Below, one piece after another: positions 7,232-33,555 of a DNA stretch of 64,000 nt. The stretch is from contig NZ_LGDV01000025.1 of the NCBI RefSeq assembly GCF_001280015.1, forward strand, positions 1 to 64,000. Direction: 5' to 3'. The translations under genes and the position numbers were made by a program. The number at the start of each line of letters is the position of its first letter. The first letter of the stretch is position 1. Origin of the DNA: Streptomyces sp. MMG1121 (GTDB taxonomy: Bacteria > Actinomycetota > Actinomycetes > Streptomycetales > Streptomycetaceae). Under the pieces are notes generated by a model. It was not told the DNA's origin and did no database searches. It saw nothing but the letters and a program-made list of their open reading frames with translations.

Positions 7232-7414
7232 TTTCCAACCCCTCCTAGACGTTCACCACGGCGGTTCGCCGCAGCACGCACTGGAAAACGGTGTGGCCCG
7301 CCGAAGGATGCGCCGTCCGGGTGACATTCCCACGACGGTATGAACCTCAGTCCGGAGCCTGACCCTCGAGGTTGCCGTGAGTGACCGCCGCGGCGAGGCG
7401 TTGCGGAGGGCGTT

Positions 7415-8056
7415 TCAGCCGGTCACGCCGTGGCGTACGGCCCACAGCGCGGCCTGGGTGCGGTCGGCGAGGTCGAGTTTCATCAGGATGTTGGAGACGT
7501 GCGTCTTGACGGTCTTCTCGGACAGGACGAGGGCGCGGGCTATCTCGCGGTTGGAGCGGCCGTCCGCGATCAGACCGAGCACCTCGCGCTCCCGCTCGGT
7601 GAGCGAGGTGCCTCTGCCCTGGCCGGAGTTGGCCTCCTCCTGGGAGAGCAGGACCTCGGCGACCTCCGGCTGGAGCAGGACGTGGCCGGCGTGCACGGAG
7701 CGGATGGCGCCGGCGAGGGCGTCGGGGTCCACGTCCTTGTAGACGTACCCGGCGGCGCCCGCGCGCAGGGCCGGGACCACCGTGCGCCGTTCGGTGAAGC
7801 TGGTGACGATCAGCACGCGCGCGGGGTTGGCGAGTTCACGGAGCTTGCGCAGGGCGTCGATGCCGTCCATGCCCGGCATCTTGACGTCCATGAGGACGAC
7901 GTCCGGGCGCAGTTCCTCGGCGCGGGCGACTCCCCCGGCGCCGTCGACGGCCTCGCCGACCACCTCGATGTCGTCCTGCACCTCCAGGAAGGTGCGCAGG
8001 CCCCGGCGGACGACCTGGTGGTCGTCGACGAGCAGCACCTTGATCGGGTCAGCCAC
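7415..8056 (-). CDS. NarL/FixJ-family response regulator
   Basis: The 213-residue regulator has a receiver domain with the acidic pair DD at 11-12, phospho-acceptor Asp57 in VVLMDVKMPG, Thr in IVTS and Lys in VYKD. A LuxR-type helix-turn-helix follows (about 148-205: TEREREVLGLIADGRSNREI, then KTVKTHVSNILMKL). It overlaps the histidine kinase gene by 8 bases, so the pair is translationally coupled and the kinase should phosphorylate Asp57. The start is GTG at 8056. The target genes are unknown, and adjacency to chpE alone does not show control of it. Confidence 0.95.
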   Translation of the reverse strand: MADPIKVLLVDDHQVVRRGLRTFLEVQDDIEVVGEAVDGAGGVARAEELRPDVVLMDVKMPGMDGIDALRKLRELANPARVLIVTSFTERRTVVPALRAGAAGYVYKDVDPDALAGAIRSVHAGHVLLQPEVAEVLLSQEEANSGQGRGTSLTEREREVLGLIADGRSNREIARALVLSEKTVKTHVSNILMKLDLADRTQAALWAVRHGVTG

Positions 8057-23965: not shown

Positions 23966-24214
23966 CGGATCACCCTTTCGATAGCGGTCTGAAGCAGTTG
24001 GACTGCCCGCCCGAACACGTCGATGACAGGCGGCTTCATCGAAAACCTATCGGTAGCGCCGCGCGCTCGGGCAAGCGGGCACCGACAGTGGCGCGGGTGA
24101 GTCCCTGTCGGATCCCTACAGAAAGGAGCAGGACGGGACCGAAACCGTGTAGTCCGCGAGGCCGGGTCCGCGACATGATCGGACCCGACAGGCCACGACA
24201 GCAGGGAGACCTCC

Positions 24215-25741
24215 GTGCCCCATTCCATCGACGAAGCCTTCACAGCGCTTCCGCTACGGGCCCTTGCCGACGCCGCACTCGCACGCGCGCGTGCGCTGGG
24301 CGCCGCGCACGCGGACTTCCGGTTCGAGCGGGTGCGCAGCGCGTCCTGGCGGCTGCGGGACGCCAAGCCCGCCGGTTCCTCGGACACCACCGACCTCGGG
24401 TACGCGGTCCGGGTCGTGCACGGCGGCACGTGGGGCTTCGCCTCCGGGGTCGACCTGACCCTGGACGCGGCGGCCAAGGTCGCCTCGCAGGCGGTGGCGA
24501 TGGCCAAGCTGTCCGCCCAGGTCATCAGGGCTGCCGGGGCCGACGAACAGGTCGAGCTGGCCGACGAGCCGGTGCACGCCGAGCGGACGTGGATCTCGTC
24601 GTACGAGATCGACCCGTTCTCGGTGCCCGACGAGGAGAAGGCCGCGCTGCTGGCGGAGTGGAGCACGCGGCTGCTGGCCGCGCAGGGTGTCGACCACGTG
24701 GACGCCTCGCTGCTCACCGTGCACGAGAACAAGTTCTACGCGGACACCGCCGGCACCGTGACCACCCAGCAGCGGGTGCGGCTGCATCCGCAGCTGACGG
24801 CGGTGTCGGTCGACGAGTCGAGCGGCGAGTTCGACTCGATGCGGACCATCGCGCCGCCCGTCGGACGCGGCTGGGAGTACCTGACGGGCACCGGCTGGGA
24901 CTGGGACGGCGAGCTGGAGCAGATCCCGGAGCTGCTCGCCGAGAAGATGCGGGCGCCGAGCGTGGAGCCGGGCCTGTACGACCTGGTGGTCGATCCCTCC
25001 AATCTGTGGCTGACCATCCACGAGTCCATCGGCCACGCCACCGAGCTGGACCGTGCCCTCGGCTACGAGGCCGCCTACGCCGGCACCTCCTTCGCCACCT
25101 TCGACCAGCTGGGCAAGCTGAGGTACGGCTCCGAGCTGATGAACGTCACCGGCGACCGGACCGCCGAGCACGGCCTCGCGACCGTCGGGTACGACGACGA
25201 GGGTGTCGAGGCGCAGTCCTGGGACCTGGTGAAGGACGGCACGCTGGTCGGCTACCAGCTGGATCGCAGGATCGCGAAGCTGACCGGTTTCGACCGCTCC
25301 AACGGCTGCGCGTTCGCCGACTCCCCCGGGCACGTGCCGGTGCAGCGCATGGCCAACGTCTCGCTCCGGCCGGACCCGGCCGGGCTGTCCACCGAGGGCC
25401 TGATCGGCGGTGTCGACCGGGGCATCTACGTCGTCGGGGACCGGTCCTGGTCGATCGACATGCAGCGGTACAACTTCCAGTTTACGGGTCAGAGGGCATA
25501 CATGATCCGGAACGGCCGCCTTGAGGGACAGGTCAAGGACTTTGCATATCAGGGAGTCACCCCTCAGTTCTGGGGCTCCATGGAAGCAGTCGGAGGACCC
25601 CAGACCTACGTACTAGGAGGGGCTTTCAACTGTGGAAAGGCCCAGCCTGGGCAGGTCGCCTCCGTGTCCCACGGGTGCCCGTCCGCAATGTTTCGGAGTG
25701 TGAACATCCTGAACACTGCGAACGAGTCCGGCCGCGCCTGA
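24215..25741 (+). CDS. tldD: TldD metalloprotease, chimeric: 3' end supplied by an integrated element
   Basis: The 508-residue protein is TldD, the zinc subunit of the TldD/TldE protease heterodimer that degrades unfolded or modified peptides. The HExxxH zinc motif is HESIGH at residues 269-274, and the expected third ligand is a cysteine near the C-terminus (Cys473 in FNCGKAQ). The gene is a hybrid. Codons 1-419 have host codon use, while from the 11-bp core at 25472 the last 89 codons switch to lower GC3 (TTT, ATA-rich flanks, CTA, GGA, GCA, CCT). They encode a tail about three-quarters identical to the displaced native tail at 31898-32164. The reading frame and Cys473 are preserved, so the enzyme is probably active. 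Confidence 0.9.
   Translation: MPHSIDEAFTALPLRALADAALARARALGAAHADFRFERVRSASWRLRDAKPAGSSDTTDLGYAVRVVHGGTWGFASGVDLTLDAAAKVASQAVAMAKLSAQVIRAAGADEQVELADEPVHAERTWISSYEIDPFSVPDEEKAALLAEWSTRLLAAQGVDHVDASLLTVHENKFYADTAGTVTTQQRVRLHPQLTAVSVDESSGEFDSMRTIAPPVGRGWEYLTGTGWDWDGELEQIPELLAEKMRAPSVEPGLYDLVVDPSNLWLTIHESIGHATELDRALGYEAAYAGTSFATFDQLGKLRYGSELMNVTGDRTAEHGLATVGYDDEGVEAQSWDLVKDGTLVGYQLDRRIAKLTGFDRSNGCAFADSPGHVPVQRMANVSLRPDPAGLSTEGLIGGVDRGIYVVGDRSWSIDMQRYNFQFTGQRAYMIRNGRLEGQVKDFAYQGVTPQFWGSMEAVGGPQTYVLGGAFNCGKAQPGQVASVSHGCPSAMFRSVNILNTANESGRA
25472..25482 (+). repeat. attL core within tldD
   Basis: AACTTCCAGTT, codons 420-423 of the hybrid tldD. It is the left copy of the duplicated attachment core; sequence to its right belongs to the element. 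Confidence 0.8.
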
Positions 25742-25801
25742 GAGGGCGACCGATCCGGCTCGAAGTCTGCACCGGGTCGACACGCAGTCACAGCCAACCA
25801 C

Positions 25802-27049
25802 CTACGCCACGTCGTCCCAGTCCTCGATGTCGTCCTCCGTGGGCGTCGGGGAGGGCGGGACGATCAGGCCCTTGAACGGCTCCAGCCTCAGCCCCAGGCG
25901 GTTGTGCATGGTGCGGGCGCCACGGTCCATGGCGCGGCGGACGAGGTGGCCGTAGACCAGTTCCGTAGTCCGAGTGGTGCGGTGACCGACCCACGCCGCC
26001 ACCTCGAAGAGCGGGATCTGAGCATGGATCGCCTCGGAGACGAAGAAGTGCCGGAAGCTCTTCGGGGTGTACTGCGGAGTCCCGGCCAGCTTGGCCGCCG
26101 CCTTGAACTGATCCAGGAACCAGTCATAGGACGGGTGGCGGTCATTCAGCCGAGGGGACTCGAAGAACCAGCCTCGGTCCCCCCAGGTCCCGAATGTATC
26201 AATGTGATCATTGAAGATCTCGTTGATTGATTCAGGCACCGGAGTCTTCCGAGTCTGCTCGAAGGCGCGATGTTTCGTGCCTCGTTTCACGCCTCGCCTG
26301 TAGCCGGAGATTTCCTGGCAGCCGTAGGCCGAGACCTGGTGATCCACAGCGAGGACGCTGCGCTCCCAGTCCATGGACTCATCAGAGAGGGCCAAGGCTT
26401 CCCCTGGGCGCACACCGCAGCCCGCCATGGCCCAGAAGCCGGCTCGGATCAGCTTTGGGGCTTCCGCGATGATCCCCAACACCTCTTCCATACTCGGGAT
26501 GTCTTCGTCGGTCACGGGGGTGAGTTGCTGCCCCGAGCGCCGACGGGGGTTCGCTTTCTTGCACGGATTGCGGCCGATGATTTCGGCGGCTACCGCATAG
26601 TTGAAAACGGACGACAGGACGTTCTTACGTCCGTTGATTCCGGTTTCTTTGTAGCCGCGTTCCTTCTGGTCCGCCTCCCATTCCTGGATGGTCGTAGGGG
26701 TGATACTGCCGATGGGCTTGGTCCCGAAGAAGGGGCCGTAGTGGTTGCCGTAGACGCTCTGGTAATTCCTCTTCGAGGACTCTTCCAGGGTTCCCGCCTC
26801 AACCCACTCGTGCCACACCTGCTCGAACGTCCGCTGCCCCGCCTTGGGGTTGATGTAGGTCCCCAAGTCCTTGTCCCGCTCGACCTTGACTGCGAACGCT
26901 TCCGCGTCTTCGAGCTTCTTGAAGGACACCTGCCGAGGCTTGCCTGCCCTGCCCCCGGGCTCCCGGTACGTCACCCGGTAGGGCTTGTGAGGGCACGTGG
27001 GTTTCTTGCGCCGGGGGCAGGAGCAGTCTTCCTTCTTGATGGTCGCCAC
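25802..27049 (-). CDS. int: Tyrosine-recombinase integrase of the element
   Basis: The 415-residue phage-type integrase should catalyse site-specific recombination at the tldD core. N-terminal residues carry a Cys/His cluster (CSC at 9-11, TCPH at 18-21), then an arm/SAM-like domain. The catalytic domain shows Arg214 in CGVRPGEAL, Lys330 and Arg333 in PKSFRHFF (the HxxR box with Lys first), His356 in GHRTT and nucleophile Tyr366 in LVYGH. The ATG at 27049 starts after the xis gene, with a 47-base gap. It is convergent with the hybrid tldD, 60 bases apart, which places int beside attL as in pSAM2-class elements. Confidence 0.95.
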   Translation of the reverse strand: MATIKKEDCSCPRRKKPTCPHKPYRVTYREPGGRAGKPRQVSFKKLEDAEAFAVKVERDKDLGTYINPKAGQRTFEQVWHEWVEAGTLEESSKRNYQSVYGNHYGPFFGTKPIGSITPTTIQEWEADQKERGYKETGINGRKNVLSSVFNYAVAAEIIGRNPCKKANPRRRSGQQLTPVTDEDIPSMEEVLGIIAEAPKLIRAGFWAMAGCGVRPGEALALSDESMDWERSVLAVDHQVSAYGCQEISGYRRGVKRGTKHRAFEQTRKTPVPESINEIFNDHIDTFGTWGDRGWFFESPRLNDRHPSYDWFLDQFKAAAKLAGTPQYTPKSFRHFFVSEAIHAQIPLFEVAAWVGHRTTRTTELVYGHLVRRAMDRGARTMHNRLGLRLEPFKGLIVPPSPTPTEDDIEDWDDVA

Positions 27050-27096
27050 GCGTGTTAACCCTTCACATGTTGATTGGTTGGTGACTGATCGTCAGC

Positions 27097-27285
27097 CTAC
27101 TCTTGCTGCATACGCTCCTCAACCCAGTTGTGTAGATCACGAGTTCGGAACCGGACATGCTTGCCGACCTTGAGGAACGGGATGCCCCAGCGCCGGTACG
27201 AGTCCATGAGGACGCGCTTCGTCACACCGAGTTCCGCCGCCGCCTCATCCGGCGTCATGAGCAGGTTGCTACCGCCCCTCACCAC
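27097..27285 (-). CDS. xis: Excisionase / MerR-like helix-turn-helix protein
   Basis: The 62-residue basic protein has a winged helix of the HTH_17/excisionase family (TPDEAAAELGVTKRVLMDSY, then FLKVGKHVRFRTRDL). It is the expected directionality factor that binds near the attachment site and steers the integrase toward excision. The GTG at 27285 overlaps the rep stop by 7 bases, so translation is coupled to rep. An ATG ten codons in is the alternative start. Confidence 0.88.
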   Translation of the reverse strand: MVRGGSNLLMTPDEAAAELGVTKRVLMDSYRRWGIPFLKVGKHVRFRTRDLHNWVEERMQQE

Positions 27286-28772
27286 CGCTCACCCCACTTC
27301 TGCGCGTCCTCCCGCGCCTCCCTGCCCAGTTGGAGACTCTGCGCGTGGTCTTCGGCGATCCCGAGGGCGAGGCCAGCCTTGCCGGGGGTGTAGCCCGAGC
27401 CGACGTAGCGCCAGGCCGATTCCGTGACCGTGTTCGGGTCGTCCACGGGCTTGGCGCTGCCCCGGCGGTGGTCGGCCCGTTCCTCGCGCAGTGCGCCGTA
27501 CGTGGTGGAGTAGCGGCGGGATTTGGTGAGGATGTGGCCCCGGTAGCCGAGGCTGTGAGCCCAGGTGCGCAGCCGGAGGTGTTCCAGTTCGGCCAGGCCG
27601 CCCAGGCGCCAGCAGGTACCCATGAGGGCCCGTACGTGGCCGTTGACAACCGCCGCGCGGATGTCATCCAGGCTGGTGACCCGGCAGTCCAGGCCGCCGG
27701 CCGTCTCGGCAGCCCCCTTGGTCACGTACTTGGCCACGTACCCGGCAACGGCCGCATCTGACGGAACGCCACCATCGGGGAAGGGGCGGATGGGGTGGGC
27801 GTCGAACTGCCCGCCCCAGCCGAGTCGTTCCGTGCCGTAGGCGTCGGAGTCCGCCACCGTGACGAAGGTCGACGCGGCGGCATGTTCGACCGCATCCAAG
27901 AGCACGTCCTCACTCGCCCAGGCCGGAGCCGACGAGCCGGGGCCGTCCGGGCCGTCCAGGCGCACGACGGCATGGAAGTGGACGGCCGCGCGCCGCTGGA
28001 ACTCGGCGACCTTGGCGAAGGACACCACCAGGTGGTCACCGAGCTTGGAGCGGGGTATGCCACCGGCGGAGGCCAGATAGCGGCGCACGGCGGTGGTGAA
28101 CCGGTCCCAGAGCCGCCCCGCGTGCGCGTGCCACAGCACATGGCCCACGTAGTCGTAGCAGTCCGGGCACAGCGGCAGACCCACCAGCGGGTCATCCTCG
28201 GTGTGCACCAGGCCGCAGCCGAGCCGCCGCCCGTGCTCGCAGCGCGGATCATCACGGCGAGGACGGCAGCGCTCCCCGTCCAGTACCCGATGCACCGGCC
28301 CGAACGAGGGGGCCGTGAGCGTGACGAACAGCCGGGGCCGATCCCGCACCACATCGGGCACGCCCTTACCACCGGACAGGCCCGCACGAACGAGCTGGAA
28401 AGTATCCCCCGCATGCAGGCGAGAGCACGGCTCGCACACCGAGGCACGCCGGTTACGGCAGCGCACGGCCAGCCGCTCACCAGGCTCCCCGGCGGTCGAG
28501 TAGGACGAGATCACCTCACCCGTAACGGCATCGCGGGTGACCGTGGAGCCGGACAGGTAAATCGGATGGGCGCAGCCACCGATGGCTTTGATCTGCTCCC
28601 GCCAGCGCGGATAGAGGGGATCACTGACGAGCCGTATAAGGTCACGGTCCGCCTCTGAGAGAGCTTGCAGACGTAGTTCGCGTGCCAGCACGCCGGAACG
28701 CTCGGCCGGAGCGGACGACGCGGCGGACAGGCGGGTTTTGCGCGTGGTGCTGTTGCCGGATTCGGCAGACAT
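27279..28772 (-). CDS. Replication initiator, RepSA-like
   Basis: The 497-residue protein resembles the RepSA-type initiators of pSAM2-class elements, which start rolling-circle replication of the excised circle. It has two zinc-type pairs, CEPC (113-116) and LCPDC (202-205). A HUH-type metal motif follows, VHFHAVV with His265 and His267, then the candidate catalytic tyrosine in GYVAKYVTKG (Tyr345 or Tyr349). Length and layout fit the family. It is first in the rep-xis-int operon. A TATAAT box on the minus strand at 28901-28896 is a candidate promoter about 120 bases before the ATG at 28772. Confidence 0.9.
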   Translation of the reverse strand: MSAESGNSTTRKTRLSAASSAPAERSGVLARELRLQALSEADRDLIRLVSDPLYPRWREQIKAIGGCAHPIYLSGSTVTRDAVTGEVISSYSTAGEPGERLAVRCRNRRASVCEPCSRLHAGDTFQLVRAGLSGGKGVPDVVRDRPRLFVTLTAPSFGPVHRVLDGERCRPRRDDPRCEHGRRLGCGLVHTEDDPLVGLPLCPDCYDYVGHVLWHAHAGRLWDRFTTAVRRYLASAGGIPRSKLGDHLVVSFAKVAEFQRRAAVHFHAVVRLDGPDGPGSSAPAWASEDVLLDAVEHAAASTFVTVADSDAYGTERLGWGGQFDAHPIRPFPDGGVPSDAAVAGYVAKYVTKGAAETAGGLDCRVTSLDDIRAAVVNGHVRALMGTCWRLGGLAELEHLRLRTWAHSLGYRGHILTKSRRYSTTYGALREERADHRRGSAKPVDDPNTVTESAWRYVGSGYTPGKAGLALGIAEDHAQSLQLGREAREDAQKWGERW

Positions 28773-29110
28773 GACGCGGCCTCCAGAGCCTCAAGTCAGG
28801 AAGTAGATAGCGGGTGTTCATGGGTTTTCTCCTTTGCGCTTACAGGGCGCTTATCCTGCATACGCCCTGATCAGGCGCAGCCAACTTGCCTTGGAATTAT
28901 ATGAGTTGGCACCGACAACGGCCTGTGATTTTTCCGTGACACTCGCAAAATCAGAACGAGGGCCGATTGTCAACCGAGTTACCGCCGGAGGCAGGGCATC
29001 TGAGGGCACGCCCGGAGAGGGGAAGTCGCACGGCCCGGCAGCGGTGAACTGAGCCTGTCTGTCCGGCCGGTTGCGCAGCGTGCCACGCGCCCATCGGGAG
29101 AGGGGAGCGG

Positions 29111-29383
29111 TCAGCGGTTCGGGGCGTGGCGGAATCTGGCTTTACTTTTTCCAGGGCGCGCCTTCGGCGCGCCGCCGGATGCGGCTTGCCGCACCCCGGC
29201 CCGGCATGCGGCCTTCGGCCGGTCCGGTCCGGGGCGCCGCCGCCCCGGCGTATACCAGACGACCCTGGAGACGTACGCCAGATCCAGCACGACCCACCTT
29301 GCCCGCCCCGATCGCGAGGGCTGTGGCCCGAGGCTCACGGCCTCCAGCAGCTCAGCCACCGACCCGGACCACGACACCCACAC
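29111..29383 (-). CDS. Possible small protein, low confidence
   Basis: A 90-codon frame starting GTG at 29383 has a plausible N-terminal half (WVSWSGSVAELLEAVSLG and WVVLDLAYVSRVVWYT) with host-like GC3. Its second half lies over four tandem hairpins and reads as low-complexity basic sequence. No ribosome site stands out and I recognise no family. It could equally be non-coding origin sequence. Confidence 0.25.
   Translation of the reverse strand: MWVSWSGSVAELLEAVSLGPQPSRSGRARWVVLDLAYVSRVVWYTPGRRRPGPDRPKAACRAGVRQAASGGAPKARPGKSKARFRHAPNR
29155..29248. repeat. Cluster of four tandem hairpins in the element
   Basis: Four separate stems follow each other: GGCGCGCC/GGCGCGCC at 29155-29173 with a TTC loop, TGCGG/CCGCA at 29180-29193, CGGCC/GGCCG at 29209-29221 with a TTC loop, and CCGGGGCG/CGCCCCGG at 29229-29248. 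Such clusters are typical of single-strand origins or terminators. Confidence 0.75.
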
Positions 29384-29486
29384 CGGCCAGCCCGAGAGCC
29401 CGCCCCGCGCGGCATCGGGCGACTCGGCCCCGCTCCGGAGGGACGAGGCTGATGTTCACCCTCTCGGGCTGGGGCCGACGGCCTAC

Positions 29487-29636
29487 GAGGATTTTAGGCA
29501 GCCACCATGGGGCGAGCCTCGAAGAACAGGGGGCCGATCGGGCTATTGCGGGCAGGTCCCAAAGACTGCCCGATCCGCTGGCGAGCGTAAGGCCCCCTGT
29601 TCACTCGCCCCATGGCAGCTCCAGCCCAAAATCCTC
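29487..29636. repeat. 150-base imperfect inverted repeat in the element
   Basis: Nested arms pair in order. GAGGATTTT (29487-29495) pairs with AAAATCCTC (29628-29636). CCATGGGGCGAG (29505-29516) pairs with CTCGCCCCATGG (29604-29615). GAACAGGGGGCC (29524-29535) pairs with GGCCCCCTGTTC (29591-29602). GATCGGGC (29536-29543) pairs with GCCCGATC (29568-29575). Together they make a long bulged stem with a small apical loop near 29556-29565. It is a candidate replication origin or a structured RNA. Confidence 0.8.
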
Positions 29637-29780
29637 TCCGGCCGGCGGCGTGCCCAAGCGCACCACCACGGCACCACACGCCCAAACACGAAAGAGCCCC
29701 GCCCGTGCGCCGGGGGAGACGCATAGACGGGGCAACCGACGCGCCGAGTCCTGGTTCGCCGTCACTCAGCGCGCCGGGGT

Positions 29781-30053
29781 CTACTCCTCATGAGTCACGC
29801 AGGTGTGATCGGCCACGACACGGCCGTCCGGCGCCGTCTGAACGTGCGCAGGTGACGCCATCAGATGCGCCGCTACCTTCTGCACCACATCAGCGTTCCA
29901 CGTCCCCATGGCCACCATCGGACGGCCGTCCGGCGCCACGCGCGGAGCCAACCAGCCAAGATCCCGCGCCGGAATCCCGATCGCCAGCAACGCCTGCCGC
30001 AACACCTCATGCGCGTCAGCAGCGGCCCTCTTGCTGCTCTTGTAGATCTCCAT
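29781..30053 (-). CDS. Hypothetical small protein of the element
   Basis: The 90-residue product begins EIYKSSKRAAADAHEVLRQ and is mixed alpha/beta with no recognisable domain. Codon use is acceptable for the host but less biased than in core genes. The ATG at 30053 lies 6 bases after the stop of the preceding gene, suggesting a two-gene unit. No ribosome site is strong. Function unknown. Confidence 0.5.
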   Translation of the reverse strand: MEIYKSSKRAAADAHEVLRQALLAIGIPARDLGWLAPRVAPDGRPMVAMGTWNADVVQKVAAHLMASPAHVQTAPDGRVVADHTCVTHEE

Positions 30054-30058
30054 GGGAA

Positions 30059-30298
30059 TCACTGCCCCGCCCCCTTCAGTGCGCAAGCCGTGTGCCAGTA
30101 CGCCACGATCGGAGACGAGTTCCGGCGAGCCAGCATCCCCCGGCGGCAGCTCTCAAGGGACTTGATCGGCACACCGCATGCCGGGCACGTCTCACCGGCC
30201 GGGGCGTAGGTCGTGTACTCCCACTGACGCGCGTCGGCATCGGCCGTGGTCATGCGCTCACGGACAGCTGTCTCTGCTGCTCTACCTTGGGTCGCCAT
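30059..30298 (-). CDS. Hypothetical small cysteine-containing protein of the element
   Basis: The 79-residue protein has a CPACG motif and another cysteine about ten residues later (SLESCRRG), plus a C-terminal YWHTACAL, which together could bind zinc. Small proteins with this CxxC...C layout are common in actinomycete plasmids and integrative elements with no assigned role. The ATG at 30298 is used; the frame is open a little further. It precedes the 90-residue gene by 5 bases. Confidence 0.5.
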   Translation of the reverse strand: MATQGRAAETAVRERMTTADADARQWEYTTYAPAGETCPACGVPIKSLESCRRGMLARRNSSPIVAYWHTACALKGAGQ

Positions 30299-30376
30299 GC
30301 ATATGACGCTATGTAACGGCAGGAACACACCTCAATGGCACTTTGATGGGGGGCCAGCCCGAAGCGCCACACCGGG

Positions 30377-31558
30377 TCACACGGGTACGCCGATCGCGTC
30401 GGCCAGGTCCCGCATCTCCTGAGTCAGGGTGCGCCGACGCGCGATCACTCGGCCGAAGATGTCCCGCGCGTAGCGTTGATTGGGCAGCCACTGTGGGGCG
30501 TCCGCGCGAATGCCCTGCAAGACCTCAACCGTTTTCGCGTAGTCACGCGAGCGGGCATGGGCCTCTGCCACGTCCAGGAGGTGACGGTTGCGGTTGTTGG
30601 AGGTGGGCCGCATGCCGCTGGTCGGGATGCGCTTCGAGAGCTTGAGCACCAAGTCCGGCTTGTCGACGATCATGGCATTCTCGGCCCGCTTCAGAGCCAC
30701 CGTGACCGGCCCGAACGCCTGCAAGAAGTCGTCACGCGGAGCGAACTCCCGCCCCATCGCGACCGCCGCCGAGTTGGCGTAGCGCAACGCGTCTTCGGCC
30801 TCCCCAGACCGGTTGTCCCGGATCGCAGCAGCGGAGGCCCGCAGCAGCAGCCAGCCCCAGGCGCTCAGCTCCGCCGGGGTCGCCCGCGAAATGCGAGGCT
30901 CGACCTCATCCGCCCACCGCGTTGCCAGCTCCCGCGCCTCAGACAACCGACCGCGCCGCAGCAAGAGCCAGCACTGTGTGCTCACCGTCGCCGCCGCCTG
31001 AAGCCGATCCGACGACTCCTCCAGCGACCGGGACAGAGCGATGTCGGCCGCCTCGAACTGCCGAGTCTGTGTGAGCAGCCAGCCTGTGAGCTGTGAGAGC
31101 CGGACACGTACGGCCCGCCCCTCCGGGCCACTCTCGGCGATCAGATCAGCATCCCGCAGCAGGGGCGGAAGGATCACACTCAGCTCTGCGAAACGATCAC
31201 CGGAGAAGAGCGGCAGGGCTGATTCCAGCGCATCCCGGACACCGCCCACGGTCGGCTCTTCCGTCGAACCGTTCGCCCGTACCGGCGCTACGAGCGCACG
31301 CCGGACAGCCTCCCAACGATCATCAGCGCCAGGCGGCGTCTCGGGATCGTCCTCATGATCAGCAATGAGGTTCGTCGTAGGCACCCGCAGGGCCTGCGCC
31401 AGTCGACGCGCAGTCTCCAGGCGCGTGTCAGACCGCTCCCCTTGCTCCAGCTTCCGGATCAAGGACAGGGACACGCTTGACTCGCTCGCTAGCTGACGCT
31501 GCGTCATGCCGCGTCGCTTGCGTACGTCCTGGAGCCGCTTGCCAATGTCGGCACTCAT
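30377..31558 (-). CDS. XRE-family regulator with TPR-like C-terminus, element-encoded
   Basis: The 393-residue protein starts with an XRE helix-turn-helix (about residues 4-65: RLQDVRKRRGMTQRQLASES, SLIRKLEQGERS). About 300 residues of helical, tetratricopeptide-like sequence follow. This layout is shared by streptomycete regulators that sense peptides or small molecules through the helical part. As the only DNA-binding regulator in the element it probably keeps rep-xis-int silent or controls entry into excision, but that is inference. The ATG at 31558 starts the HTH exactly; the long upstream frame is not used. Confidence 0.82.
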   Translation of the reverse strand: MSADIGKRLQDVRKRRGMTQRQLASESSVSLSLIRKLEQGERSDTRLETARRLAQALRVPTTNLIADHEDDPETPPGADDRWEAVRRALVAPVRANGSTEEPTVGGVRDALESALPLFSGDRFAELSVILPPLLRDADLIAESGPEGRAVRVRLSQLTGWLLTQTRQFEAADIALSRSLEESSDRLQAAATVSTQCWLLLRRGRLSEARELATRWADEVEPRISRATPAELSAWGWLLLRASAAAIRDNRSGEAEDALRYANSAAVAMGREFAPRDDFLQAFGPVTVALKRAENAMIVDKPDLVLKLSKRIPTSGMRPTSNNRNRHLLDVAEAHARSRDYAKTVEVLQGIRADAPQWLPNQRYARDIFGRVIARRRTLTQEMRDLADAIGVPV

Positions 31559-31897
31559 GATTCGAGCGTACGGCGCCCGCCGTCCGTCCGGGCAGCCTTC
31601 ACCGCTCGTCACTCCCGCAGGCTGCCTTGTCATGCAACTGGAGAGTCTGAGGTCAGGGCGATATCTGCATCCCAGCCCGGACCAGCGATGGGTAGTCTCT
31701 GATCCGATCTGGAGCCAGTCTCCAGGACCCGCCCCAGGCAGCCCCAAGGCGGATCCCGGAGGTCGACACCAGGTCATCACCAGACCCCGTACAGTCCGGT
31801 TTCACCCCGTATGAACAGGGATTGAGGGCAGACCTTGAATAGCCGCCTGACCTGCACAAACGCCGTTCAGAGACGTATGCCCCCCGACCCTGCGGTG
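31559..31897. other. Right-end non-coding region of the element
   Basis: This 339-base stretch lies between the XRE regulator and the right attachment core and should contain integrase arm sites and promoters. Visible features are an inverted repeat CTGGAG-N5-CTCCAG (31709-31725), a TACAGT -10-like box (31790-31795) directed rightward, and a TTG codon at 31835 preceded by GAGGG that opens a frame into the displaced tldD tail. No gene of its own is seen. Confidence 0.5.
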
Positions 31898-31908
31898 AAC
31901 TTCCAGTT
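31898..31908 (+). repeat. attR core
   Basis: Second copy of AACTTCCAGTT, identical to 25472-25482 and in the same tldD codon phase. Chromosomal sequence resumes here. Confidence 0.8.
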
Positions 31909-32164
31909 CACCGGGCAGCGCTTCTTCAGGATCGAGAACGGGCGGATCACCGGGCAGCTGAAGGACGTGGCGTACCAGGCGACCACGACCGACTTCTGGG
32001 GGTCGATGGCCGCCGTGGGCGGTCCGCAGACCTATGTCCTCGGCGGCGCCTTCAACTGCGGCAAGGCCCAGCCCGGACAGGTGGCCGCCGTGTCGCACGG
32101 CTGCCCCTCGGCCCTGTTCAAGGGAGTCAACATCCTCAACACCACGCAGGAGGCCGGTCGATGA
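31898..32164 (+). pseudogene. tldD: Displaced native 3' end of tldD
   Basis: These 88 codons encode NFQFTGQRFF through NTTQEAGR, the original TldD C-terminus with its FNCGKAQ cysteine, in host-typical codons. They were separated from codons 1-419 by the element. The frame is still open and connects upstream to a TTG at 31835 with GAGGG before it, so a 109-residue fragment could be made. Its stop overlaps the tldE start (ATGA), so translating the fragment may still couple to tldE. On its own it lacks the HExxxH motif and cannot be an active protease. Confidence 0.9.
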
Positions 32165-33555
32165 GTGCCCGTAGCAACAAGCCGCACGAGATCGTCGAGC
32201 AGGCGCTCGCGCTGTCGCGGGCCGACGGGTGTGTCGTCATCGCCGACGAGCAGTCGACCGCCAACCTGCGCTGGGCGGGCAACGCGCTCACCACGAACGG
32301 GGTGACGCGCGGTCGTACACTCACCGTGATCGCGACCGTGGACGGGCAGCAGGGCACCGCCTCCGGTGTCGTGTCGCGCTCGGCGGTCACCGCCGAGGAG
32401 CTGGAGCCGCTGGTGCGGGCCGCCGAGGCTGCCGCACGCGGTGCCGGGCCCGCCGAGGACGCGCAGCCCCTGGTCGCCGGGGTGCCGCAGTCCCCCGACT
32501 TCACGGACGCGCCCGCCGAGACCTCCTCCGCGGTGTTCGCCGACTTCGCCCCGGCGCTCGGCGAGGCGTTCGCACGCGCGCGTGCGGGCGGCCGCGAACT
32601 GTACGGCTTCGCCAACCACGAGCTGGTGTCGACCTACATGGGTACGTCGACCGGGCTGCGCCTCAGGCACGACCAGCCCACCGGCACGCTGGAGCTGAAC
32701 GCCAAGTCGCCCGACCGGCTGCGCTCGGCCTGGGCCGGCCGCTCCACGCGGGACTTCAAGGACGTCGACCCGGGCGCCCTGGACGCCGAGCTGGCCGTAC
32801 GGCTCGGCTGGGCGCAGCGGCGCGTGGAACTGCCCGCGGGCCGCTACGAGACGCTGCTGCCGCCGACCGCGGTCGCGGACCTGCTGATCTACCAGCTGTG
32901 GTCGGCGTCGGGCCGGGACGCGGCCGAGGGCCGGACGGTGTTCTCCAAGCCGGGCGGGGGCACGCGGGTCGGTGACCGGTTGAGCGAGCTGCCGCTGACG
33001 CTGCGCAGCGACCCGAACGAGCCGGGCCTGGAGTGCGCGCCGTTCGCGGTCGCCCACTCCTCCGGCGGCGATCAGTCGGTGTTCGACAACGGGCTGCCGG
33101 CGCGGGCCACCGAGTGGATCGGCGAGGGTGTGCTGAAGCACCTCACCACCACCCGGCACAGCGCGGCGCTGACCGGGCTGCCGGTCGCCCCGGCGCTCGG
33201 GAACCTGATCCTGGACGGCGGGCAGGACCGCTCGCTCCAGGAGATGGTCGCGAGCACCGAACGCGGGCTGCTGCTGACCTGCCTGTGGTACATCCGCGAG
33301 GTCGATCCGGCGACGCTGCTGCTGACCGGCCTGACCCGGGACGGGGTCTACCTCGTGGAGAACGGCGAGGTGACCGGGCAGGTGAACAACTTCCGGTTCA
33401 ACGAGTCGCCGGTGGACCTGCTCGGGCGGGCCGCGGAGGCCGGGCGCAGCGAGAAGACGCTGCCGCGCGAGTGGAGCGACTGGTTCACCCGGGCCGCGAT
33501 GCCGGCGCTGCGGATCCCGGATTTCAATATGAGCTCTGTCAGTCAGGGCGTATAA
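32161..33555 (+). CDS. tldE: TldE/PmbA metalloprotease partner subunit
   Basis: The 464-residue protein is the TldE (PmbA) subunit, which lacks the zinc motif and forms the heterodimeric protease barrel with TldD. Typical parts are the N-terminal RADGCVVIADEQSTANLRWAG region, FANHELVSTYMGTSTGLRLR, and the C-terminal GVYLVENGEVTGQVNNFRFN. The start codon overlaps the end of the displaced tldD tail, the native operon arrangement. Because the element now separates it from tldD by 6.4 kb, its transcription must come from inside the element or from readthrough. Confidence 0.93.
   Translation: MSARSNKPHEIVEQALALSRADGCVVIADEQSTANLRWAGNALTTNGVTRGRTLTVIATVDGQQGTASGVVSRSAVTAEELEPLVRAAEAAARGAGPAEDAQPLVAGVPQSPDFTDAPAETSSAVFADFAPALGEAFARARAGGRELYGFANHELVSTYMGTSTGLRLRHDQPTGTLELNAKSPDRLRSAWAGRSTRDFKDVDPGALDAELAVRLGWAQRRVELPAGRYETLLPPTAVADLLIYQLWSASGRDAAEGRTVFSKPGGGTRVGDRLSELPLTLRSDPNEPGLECAPFAVAHSSGGDQSVFDNGLPARATEWIGEGVLKHLTTTRHSAALTGLPVAPALGNLILDGGQDRSLQEMVASTERGLLLTCLWYIREVDPATLLLTGLTRDGVYLVENGEVTGQVNNFRFNESPVDLLGRAAEAGRSEKTLPREWSDWFTRAAMPALRIPDFNMSSVSQGV

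What the first reader, a model, noticed from the sequence alone, without database searches (positions are those of the whole stretch)
25472..31908. Integrative element in a protein gene (tldD) with a replacement 3' end
The direct repeat AACTTCCAGTT flanks a 6.4-kb int-xis-rep element, and the 88 codons after the right copy match the 89 codons after the left copy at about three quarters of residues. This shows that the element entered tldD at codon 420 and brought a substitute C-terminal end so that the host keeps a full-length TldD. Most actinomycete integrative elements of this type use tRNA genes. The replaced part holds Cys473, the expected third zinc ligand, so the element must supply a functional tail. 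I am not aware of a described tldD-specific integrative element.
Basis: partly seen in the sequence, partly recalled or inferred. Interest (0 to 1): 0.88.

Follow-up and report, generated by a model that had tools for sequence, protein, structure and literature searches.

The report
Mobile element that repairs tldD-tldE
A small mobile DNA element sits inside a conserved protease gene of a Streptomyces-type bacterium and carries a spare end for that gene, so the host keeps a full-length enzyme; the same insertion kit was found in 17 other related genomes and in a Streptomyces virus.

Summary
An 11-bp repeat (25472, 31898; none in 100 shuffles) brackets a 6.4-kb int-xis-repSA element in tldD at codon 420. 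The 89-codon tail beside int matches the displaced host tail at 68 of 88 residues and keeps the zinc-ligand Cys473. Relatives support the interpretation. In 18 of 18 integrated elements fetched with an integrase at least 70% identical, int lies beside such a tail. The genome of Streptomyces phage Success carries similar int and xis genes, arm-type repeats and a tail (gp10, annotated 'metalloprotease'), so attP itself holds the tail. 14 of 16 element tails group with the phage's, apart from displaced tails and 28 of 29 other tldD tails. I infer that this restarts tldE expression; untested. A TraB gene was found in 3 of 18 elements, not in the window's. My searches found no paper describing tldD as an attachment site; one relevant supplement could not be read. 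New variant of a known kind.

The parts
24215..25471 (+). tldD, host-derived codons 1-419 (HExxxH at residue 269)
   Evidence: ORF, Pfam PF01523 and PF19289
25472..25482 (+). left core repeat AACTTCCAGTT (attL)
   Evidence: crossover confined to the first 8 bp if the L041 mismatch at position 9 is an element/host difference
25472..25741 (+). element-supplied replacement tail of tldD, 89 codons plus stop, with Cys473
   Evidence: 68 of 88 residues identical to displaced tail, GC3 0.71; groups with element and phage tails
25764..25783 (+). two putative Int arm-type sites (RGTCNNCAC, 11 bp apart), +292/+303 from core
   Evidence: same distances in phage Success
25802..27049 (-). int, tyrosine integrase, 415 aa
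   Evidence: PF00589, PF14659, PF22022
27097..27285 (-). xis, excisionase-type HTH, 62 aa
   Evidence: PF12728; TIGR01764 above cut-off
27279..28772 (-). repSA-like replication initiator, 497 aa
   Evidence: PF20199 E 2.9e-158
29467..29664 (.). non-coding hairpin of about 200 nt, candidate replication origin structure
   Evidence: folds at -120 (+) and -134 (-) kcal/mol; partly matched on 12 plasmid records
29781..30086 (-). 101-aa ORF, no family
   Evidence: also in L032, L034, L045, L053
30059..30328 (-). 89-aa ORF, no family
30377..31558 (-). XRE-family regulator, 393 aa
   Evidence: HTH_3 E 1.1e-11
31761..31780 (+). two putative Int arm-type sites, -137/-126 from core
31790..31795 (+). TACAGT, possible -10 (TAGAGT in phage); inferred
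   Evidence: read from the junctions printed; the sigma-70 scan found none, 0.1 expected by chance
31824..31828 (+). GAGGG, likely ribosome-binding site of the leader ORF
   Evidence: within 24 nt of the leader start in 14 of 15 junctions; altered in the L034 outer junction
31835..31897 (+). element leader: start codon plus 20 codons in frame with the displaced host tail
   Evidence: 15 of 15 junctions examined; 14 of 18 database proteins read carry it whole
31898..31908 (+). right core repeat (attR)
31898..32164 (+). displaced host 3' end of tldD, 88 codons; stop overlaps tldE start (ATGA)
   Evidence: groups with native tails
32161..33555 (+). tldE/pmbA-type partner subunit
   Evidence: PF19289 E 1.4e-28

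Best explanation
The 6.4-kb segment is a tra-less relative of pSAM2-type actinomycete integrative elements. Its tyrosine integrase recombines an attP of about 450 bp with an 11-bp core inside tldD (codon 420). attP is laid out as: two arm sites, promoter/ribosome site, 21-codon leader, core, 89-codon tldD tail, two arm sites, int. Integration splits the tldDE operon, and the element mends both cut ends. On the int side, its own tail completes TldD with the zinc ligand Cys473. On the other side, its leader gives the displaced host tail a new translation start; that 109-codon ORF runs into tldE through an ATGA overlap. Shown by sequence and comparison: site, tail swap, empty sites, attP with tail in a phage, low dN/dS of the tail, conserved leader frame. 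Inferred: that Int uses these arm sites, that the element still excises, that TldD with this tail is active, that the leader region drives tldE.
For: Repeat and tails. In 18 of 18 fetched integrated elements with Int at least 70% identical the tail lies beside int, against 0 of 29 loci with weaker Int. Phage Success: Int 86%, Xis 69%, gp10 = leader plus tail. Arm-type pairs at -137/-126 in 11 of 15 right sides and +292/+303 in 11 of 17 left sides. Empty site in 28 of 29 tldD loci fetched from relatives. Tail tree: 14 of 16 attL tails plus phage grouped, support 100/98. dN/dS of element tails 0-0.25; Cys kept in 17 of 17; 89 codons in 17 of 17. Leader: start codon at -63 and no in-frame stop in 15 of 15, while the other two frames hold stops in 15 and 13 of 15. 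In 11 of 13 right ends the overlapped ATG is the tldE start. In G018 no Int or Rep remains, the displaced tail is nearly gone, and an element-type tail still ends TldD.
Against: No excision, circle, activity or transcript data. No sigma-70-like promoter at 31500-32200 (weak test, 0.1 expected by chance). Leader substitutions are not biased to codon position 3 (12/13/12 in 10 sequences), so the leader peptide itself is not clearly selected. tldE has its own GGAGG site, and four elements (L033, L113, L040, L044) have lost the leader and most or all of the displaced tail but keep tldE, so the leader is not indispensable. In 2 of 13 right ends (L034 outer, L067) the overlapped ATG opens a 29-codon ORF and tldE begins 86 nt on. 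Displaced tails also show low dN/dS against the nearest native (0-0.23 in 12 of 13), so low values alone do not prove present use. Two attL tails (L068, L044) group with host tails. In 11 elements with whole Int, tail distances track Int (r 0.80) no better than host tldD body (0.79); without L068 and L033 the partial link to Int is 0.20.
Confidence: 0.86

Rival explanations
1. The leader is only attP spacer DNA. The element replaces the tldD tail, and the open frame on the other side is a by-product of attP geometry and common descent; tldE is expressed from elsewhere.
For: Arm-to-core spacing is fixed on both sides in most elements, which would also keep the leader at 63 nt; no codon-position bias; four elements lost the leader but keep tldE; tldE has its own GGAGG.
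Against: The start codon varies among ATG, GTG and TTG but is a start in 15 of 15, and frame 0 is open in all 15 while other frames have stops; GAGGG kept in 14 of 15; P0019 and P0088, with the most different leaders among the 16 aligned, keep the frame, though P0088's prediction begins four residues later.
Confidence: 0.35
2. A tandem or segmental duplication of the tldD 3' end, or an IS/transposon insertion, produced the repeat, and int is a neighbour by chance.
For: Two partial gene copies are present.
Against: The two tails differ at 29% of nucleotides and fall in different tree groups; the same layout recurs in 18 elements and in a phage.
Confidence: 0.02
3. The tail serves chiefly as homology for RecA-type recombination and not to mend TldD.
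For: Mosaic tails exist (L095, the L067 displaced tail, L044), so exchange between tail copies probably occurs.
Against: Low dN/dS and invariant Cys in element tails; 89-codon frame in 17 of 17 tails; homology of 71% is poor for RecA (established knowledge).
Confidence: 0.04

Closest known systems
pSAM2-type actinomycete integrative and conjugative elements (AICEs; PMC3218068, passages read)
   Same: int, xis, RepSA-type rep side by side; three tldD elements (L067, L068, L114) also match an FtsK/SpoIIIE-type TraB
   Different: no tra found in the window element; site is a protein gene with replacement tail, whereas the paper says the vast majority of tyrosine-integrase AICEs use tRNA 3' ends, with the pSLS sub-family as exception
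Streptomyces phage Success (NC_073472) integration module
   Same: Int 86%, Xis 69%, nearly the same core (one base differs within the 11 bp), arm-type repeats, leader and tldD tail
   Different: a 57-kb phage; RepSA, XRE and TldE gave no hit in the 13 kb read; gp10 is annotated as a metalloprotease although it is a C-terminal fragment
dusA-associated islands and prophages (PMC4482086, passages read)
   Same: islands in a protein gene that supply the replaced part, with putative promoters kept upstream of it
   Different: they replace the 5' end of one gene; here a 3' end is replaced and a separate start is offered to the next operon gene; proteobacterial
Phage 21/e14 in icd, SXT in prfC and other elements that restore the end of a protein gene (recalled, not tested)
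   Same: replacement logic
   Different: other genes, hosts and integrases; no operon-partner leader that I recall
AICE03 of strain RLB3-6 in rlmN (PMC9513070, passages read)
   Same: Streptomyces AICE in a protein gene with an 11-nt repeat
   Different: rlmN, other integrase; sequence not compared

Membership tests
AICE (actinomycete integrative and conjugative element) | site-specific integrase at one end | tested here: met
   tyrosine Int, att repeats
AICE (actinomycete integrative and conjugative element) | AICE-type replication initiator | tested here: met
   PF20199 RepSA 528 bits; NCBIfam RepSA equivalog cut-off not reached (480 of 700 bits)
AICE (actinomycete integrative and conjugative element) | FtsK/SpoIIIE-type TraB | tested here: not met
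   none of the six element ORFs given to Pfam matches it; tblastn with L067 TraB hits 3 of 18 elements, L067, L068 and L114, not the window (L039 and L044 are cut by contig ends)
tldD-site integrase group (defined here) | Int at least 70% identical, tldD tail between core and int | tested here: met
   18 of 18 integrated elements fetched, and 1 phage; 0 of 29 loci with weaker Int; most of the 43 Int proteins were not placed
lambda-type tyrosine integrase with bivalent arm/core binding | arm-type sites on both sides of core | tested here: inconclusive
   paired RGTCNNCAC repeats at conserved distances; binding not tested
functional, mobile element | excised circle and restored attB | not testable with these tools
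   needs reads or PCR; phage attP is indirect support

The most novel reading that the evidence does not exclude
A portable integration module, shared by conjugative-type elements and a phage, repairs a whole operon and not just a gene: it supplies the metal-binding tail of TldD at one end and a promoter plus translated, coupling leader for TldE at the other. After the element decays or loses the displaced tail (G018, L033, L113, L040), the host is left with the element's tail as its own TldD C-terminus, so mobile elements steadily rewrite a core protease.
Probability: 0.5. Interest if true: 0.74.

Novelty: new variant of a known kind. Interest (0 to 1): 0.6.

Why it matters
It adds tldD to the insertion sites of Streptomyces integrative elements, links those elements to a phage through a shared integration kit, and offers a clean case for asking how a mobile element keeps a two-gene operon working when it lands in the middle. 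It also explains a misleading annotation (a phage 'metalloprotease' that is a gene fragment in attP) and suggests a tldD-specific integration vector for Streptomyces.

Tried and rejected
A tRNA site: none in the window. Rfam: no match in 24000-33000 at E 0.5. Viral contigs: two scans, with Int and with phage gp10, gave no relative. Plasmids: no tldD element, only parts of the hairpin; the six plasmid records with a tldD-tail hit were not followed further. Int/tail co-evolution as proof that tails travel with Int: mixed, not claimed. Selection on the leader peptide: variable columns 12/13/12 by codon position against T6, C7 and P16 invariant in 16 aligned proteins; left open. The L034 middle tail in the tree is frameshifted and its long branch is not meaningful. 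Relatives with weaker Int as members: rejected, 0 of 29 loci checked have a tldD match (25 loci with up to 1.5 kb each side; L058, L059, L115 and L116). Four of the 7 fetched at up to 20 kb abut the 3' part of a phosphoribosyltransferase gene, and in L115 that gene is cut with no second tail. The other weak Int hits listed were not examined. Structure prediction was not run: a model of TldD with either tail would not decide activity.
Full report
WHAT IS THERE. AACTTCCAGTT occurs twice in the 64-kb window, at 25472 and 31898, and never in 100 shuffles. It is the exact start of a 263-nt direct repeat at 71% identity. The left copy sits inside an intact 508-codon tldD (24215-25741) at codon 420; 68 of 88 residues after the two copies are identical; differences by codon position are 17/9/48 over 258 nt; third-position GC is 0.71 in the left tail, 0.92 in the right tail and 0.95 in the tldD body. 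So the left tail is the foreign one and the right tail the host's own. Between them are int, xis, a RepSA-type initiator, two small ORFs and an XRE regulator, all on the minus strand, with no tRNA and no FtsK/SpoIIIE match among the six element proteins scanned. The host is of the genus Streptomyces by inference: genomes listed as its genus-mates hold contigs of the same length and match as named Streptomyces records.

RELATIVES. Int searches covered 199 genomes of relatives, a scan of one genome per species that returned 9 loci, 392 genomes of the genus and 394 of the family (with a distant Int as query). In 18 of 18 the tldD body is followed directly by a tail, and int lies convergent beside it. 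In the genus sample, 10 of 392 genomes carry one; 12 passed the E cut-off, and two of these (G010, G298) have only a 35-40% Int. The protein database holds 43 Int relatives at E 1e-100 or better; most were not placed in their genomes. TraB was found in 3 of 18: L067, L068 and L114 (Pfam FtsK_SpoIIIE for L067); L039 and L044 are cut by contig ends. The group thus includes elements with int, rep and tra, while the window's is a small tra-less one.

THE FREE FORM. Tblastn of Int against 50,697 phage records gave 491 records; the only ones above 60% identity were the two copies of Streptomyces phage Success, at 86%. In that genome gp11 is Int, gp12 matches Xis (69%), and gp10, annotated 'metalloprotease', is 110 aa: a 21-residue leader followed by a tldD tail. 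Its core differs from the window's at one of 11 bases. Joining the window's right-end leader to its left tail in a script gives an ORF of the same layout and length. This is the arrangement expected of attP, seen in a free genome.

ATT ANATOMY. Pairs of RGTCNNCAC repeats 11 bp apart lie at -137/-126 from the core in 11 of 15 right sides and at +292/+303 in 11 of 17 left sides, the window and the phage among both. Most others have one site of the pair or a shift of 1-10 bp; none was found beside L033's tail or at the L034 outer junction. I read them as Int arm sites (inference). In L041 the attL core has A and the attR core G at position 9, which, if it is an element/host difference, places the crossover in the first 8 bp.

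TAILS. Of 29 tldD loci fetched from relatives, 28 have an 88-codon tail whose stop overlaps the next start and no element between. The 29th, G018 (L100/L101), has an element-type tail, 3.2 kb of DNA with no Int or Rep match, and only the last codons of the displaced tail before tldE: by my reading a decayed occupant whose tail remains in use. In a tree of 60 tails, 14 of 16 attL tails, the phage tail, L100 and the frameshifted middle copy of L034 separate from the native and displaced tails (100/98); L068 and L044 do not. The bootstrap had not fully settled, and L113/L114 were not in this tree. dN/dS between each element tail and its nearest kin is 0-0.25. Displaced tails against their nearest native give 0-0.23 in 12 of 13, which includes the time before displacement, so low values alone do not prove present use. 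FNCGKA is in 17 of 17 element tails; its Cys lies at the CGK motif shared with E. coli TldD, whose Cys454 is a zinc ligand (PMC5810440, passages). Some tails are mosaics: L095 is element-like over its first 48 nt and native after; the L067 displaced tail and L044 are mixed. This suggests past exchange between tail copies. In 11 elements with whole Int, tail distance correlates with Int distance (0.80) and with host body distance (0.79), so I do not claim strict co-inheritance with Int.

THE OTHER END. The host's displaced tail does not simply hang free. In 15 junctions examined (13 right ends of distinct elements, one internal junction of the doubled L034 locus, one phage attP) a start codon (ATG, GTG or TTG) stands exactly 63 nt before the core, in frame, with no stop in frame 0. 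The other two frames have stops in 15 and 13 of 15. GAGGG lies just upstream in 14 of 15; the decayed L034 outer junction has an altered form. Of the 18 elements, four lack this end (L033, L113, L040, L044), and L114's was not reached, though protein P0008 (S. natalensis, contig of the same length, 86,140) is probably it. A database search found 984 short relatives, 120 of them listed; of 18 chosen from the list and read, 14 carry the whole 21-residue leader (phage gp10 among them), P0088 lacks its first four residues, P0013 has the last seven, and P0030 and P0059 have none. In 13 of 13 right ends the displaced tail's stop overlaps an ATG. In 11 of 13 this ATG is in frame with tldE; in the other two (L034 outer, L067) it opens a 29-codon ORF and the tldE match starts 86 nt on, a spacing also present in one native locus, L083. 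TldD and TldE act as a heterodimer and both are needed for activity in E. coli (PMC5810440 summary), so an element that cuts the operon would be expected to hurt TldE supply. The best reading is that this end supplies a promoter and translation start for the displaced tail and, through the ATGA overlap, tldE. Against it: no sigma-70-like site was found, though only 0.1 is expected by chance and the scan does not cover other promoter types; the leader codons show no third-position bias; tldE has its own GGAGG; four elements do without the leader. I put the tldE-restart step at about 0.6.

DECAY AND STACKING. L034 holds two elements end to end with a broken int. Its outer displaced tail has dN/dS 0.63 against the nearest native, yet stays open through to ATGA. 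L033, L113 and L040 have lost the displaced tail wholly or nearly so, so in those hosts the element tail is now the only full TldD end seen.

SISTER INTEGRASES. None of 29 loci with weaker Int has a tldD match. Of 7 of these fetched at up to 20 kb (Int 33-44%), four (L058, L059, L115, L116) abut the 3' part of a phosphoribosyltransferase gene. That part occurs once in each of the four genomes. In L115 the 5' part lies 5.1 kb away, truncated by a stop, with no replacement tail. Tail replacement therefore looks like a trait of the tldD group, not of the wider integrase family; only L115 was followed to both ends.

KNOWN OR NEW. Elements that restore a protein gene are a known kind (stated in PMC12884075, passages; 5'-end version in PMC4482086, passages). 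Searches for tldD with integration terms in 5.39 million open papers (listings, the last four asking for only some of the terms and three of them showing only the best 20) showed nothing describing tldD as a Streptomyces attachment site. A search for phage Success with Streptomyces listed 3 papers, none on this phage by title. The one tldD co-occurrence opened for this question lists tldD beside a genome-plasticity region in Photorhabdus/Xenorhabdus (PMC3091717, passage). PMC3218068 and PMC9513070 do not hold 'tldD' in the main text (term counts and passages); the latter's table of 14 protein-gene sites was not readable here. I class it as a new variant of a known kind: the tail swap is familiar, while the site, the sharing with a phage, and the apparent care for the second operon gene are not described in what I could read.

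Re-reading the calls and one more script changed these facts: GAGGG is in 14 of 15 junctions, the overlapped ATG is the tldE start in 11 of 13 right ends, empty sites were verified at 28 loci, and 29 weaker-Int loci were checked.

Noticed in passing
window 29467-29664: A nearly self-complementary non-coding stretch of about 200 nt (MFE -120/-134 kcal/mol), matched over 197-244 nt in 6 other tldD-element loci plus a 44-nt piece in L034, and in part on 12 plasmid records (Kutzneria 91%, Streptomyces), with no phage or Rfam match. Possible single-strand origin of rolling-circle replication.
   Followed up: partly
L031 (phage Success NC_073472) 7308-7640: gp10 annotated 'metalloprotease' is an attP-borne tldD tail with leader, not a whole protease; an annotation trap.
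   Followed up: yes
L058, L059, L115, L116: Related integrases (40-44%) lie at a phosphoribosyltransferase gene; in L115 the gene is split with no replacement tail.
   Followed up: partly
L034 11200-13100: Two tldD elements stacked; the outer displaced tail is decaying (dN/dS 0.63) but its frame is still open to ATGA.
   Followed up: partly
L034 outer junction, L067 16698-16784, native L083 (and L090, 89 nt): Between tldD and tldE some loci have 86 nt; in L034 and L067 this is a 29-codon ORF that starts in the tldD stop (ATGA) and ends in EAGR/EAGQ like tldD, at the tldE start: a possible second coupling step.
   Followed up: partly
L095 (G023), L067 16435-16698, L044: Mosaic tldD tails: element-like near the core, native further on, suggesting exchange between tail copies or scars of past occupants.
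   Followed up: partly
L067 8183-11485: A 1100-aa NB-ARC/TPR repeat protein carried as cargo by the 14.6-kb tldD element of S. griseocarneus.
   Followed up: no
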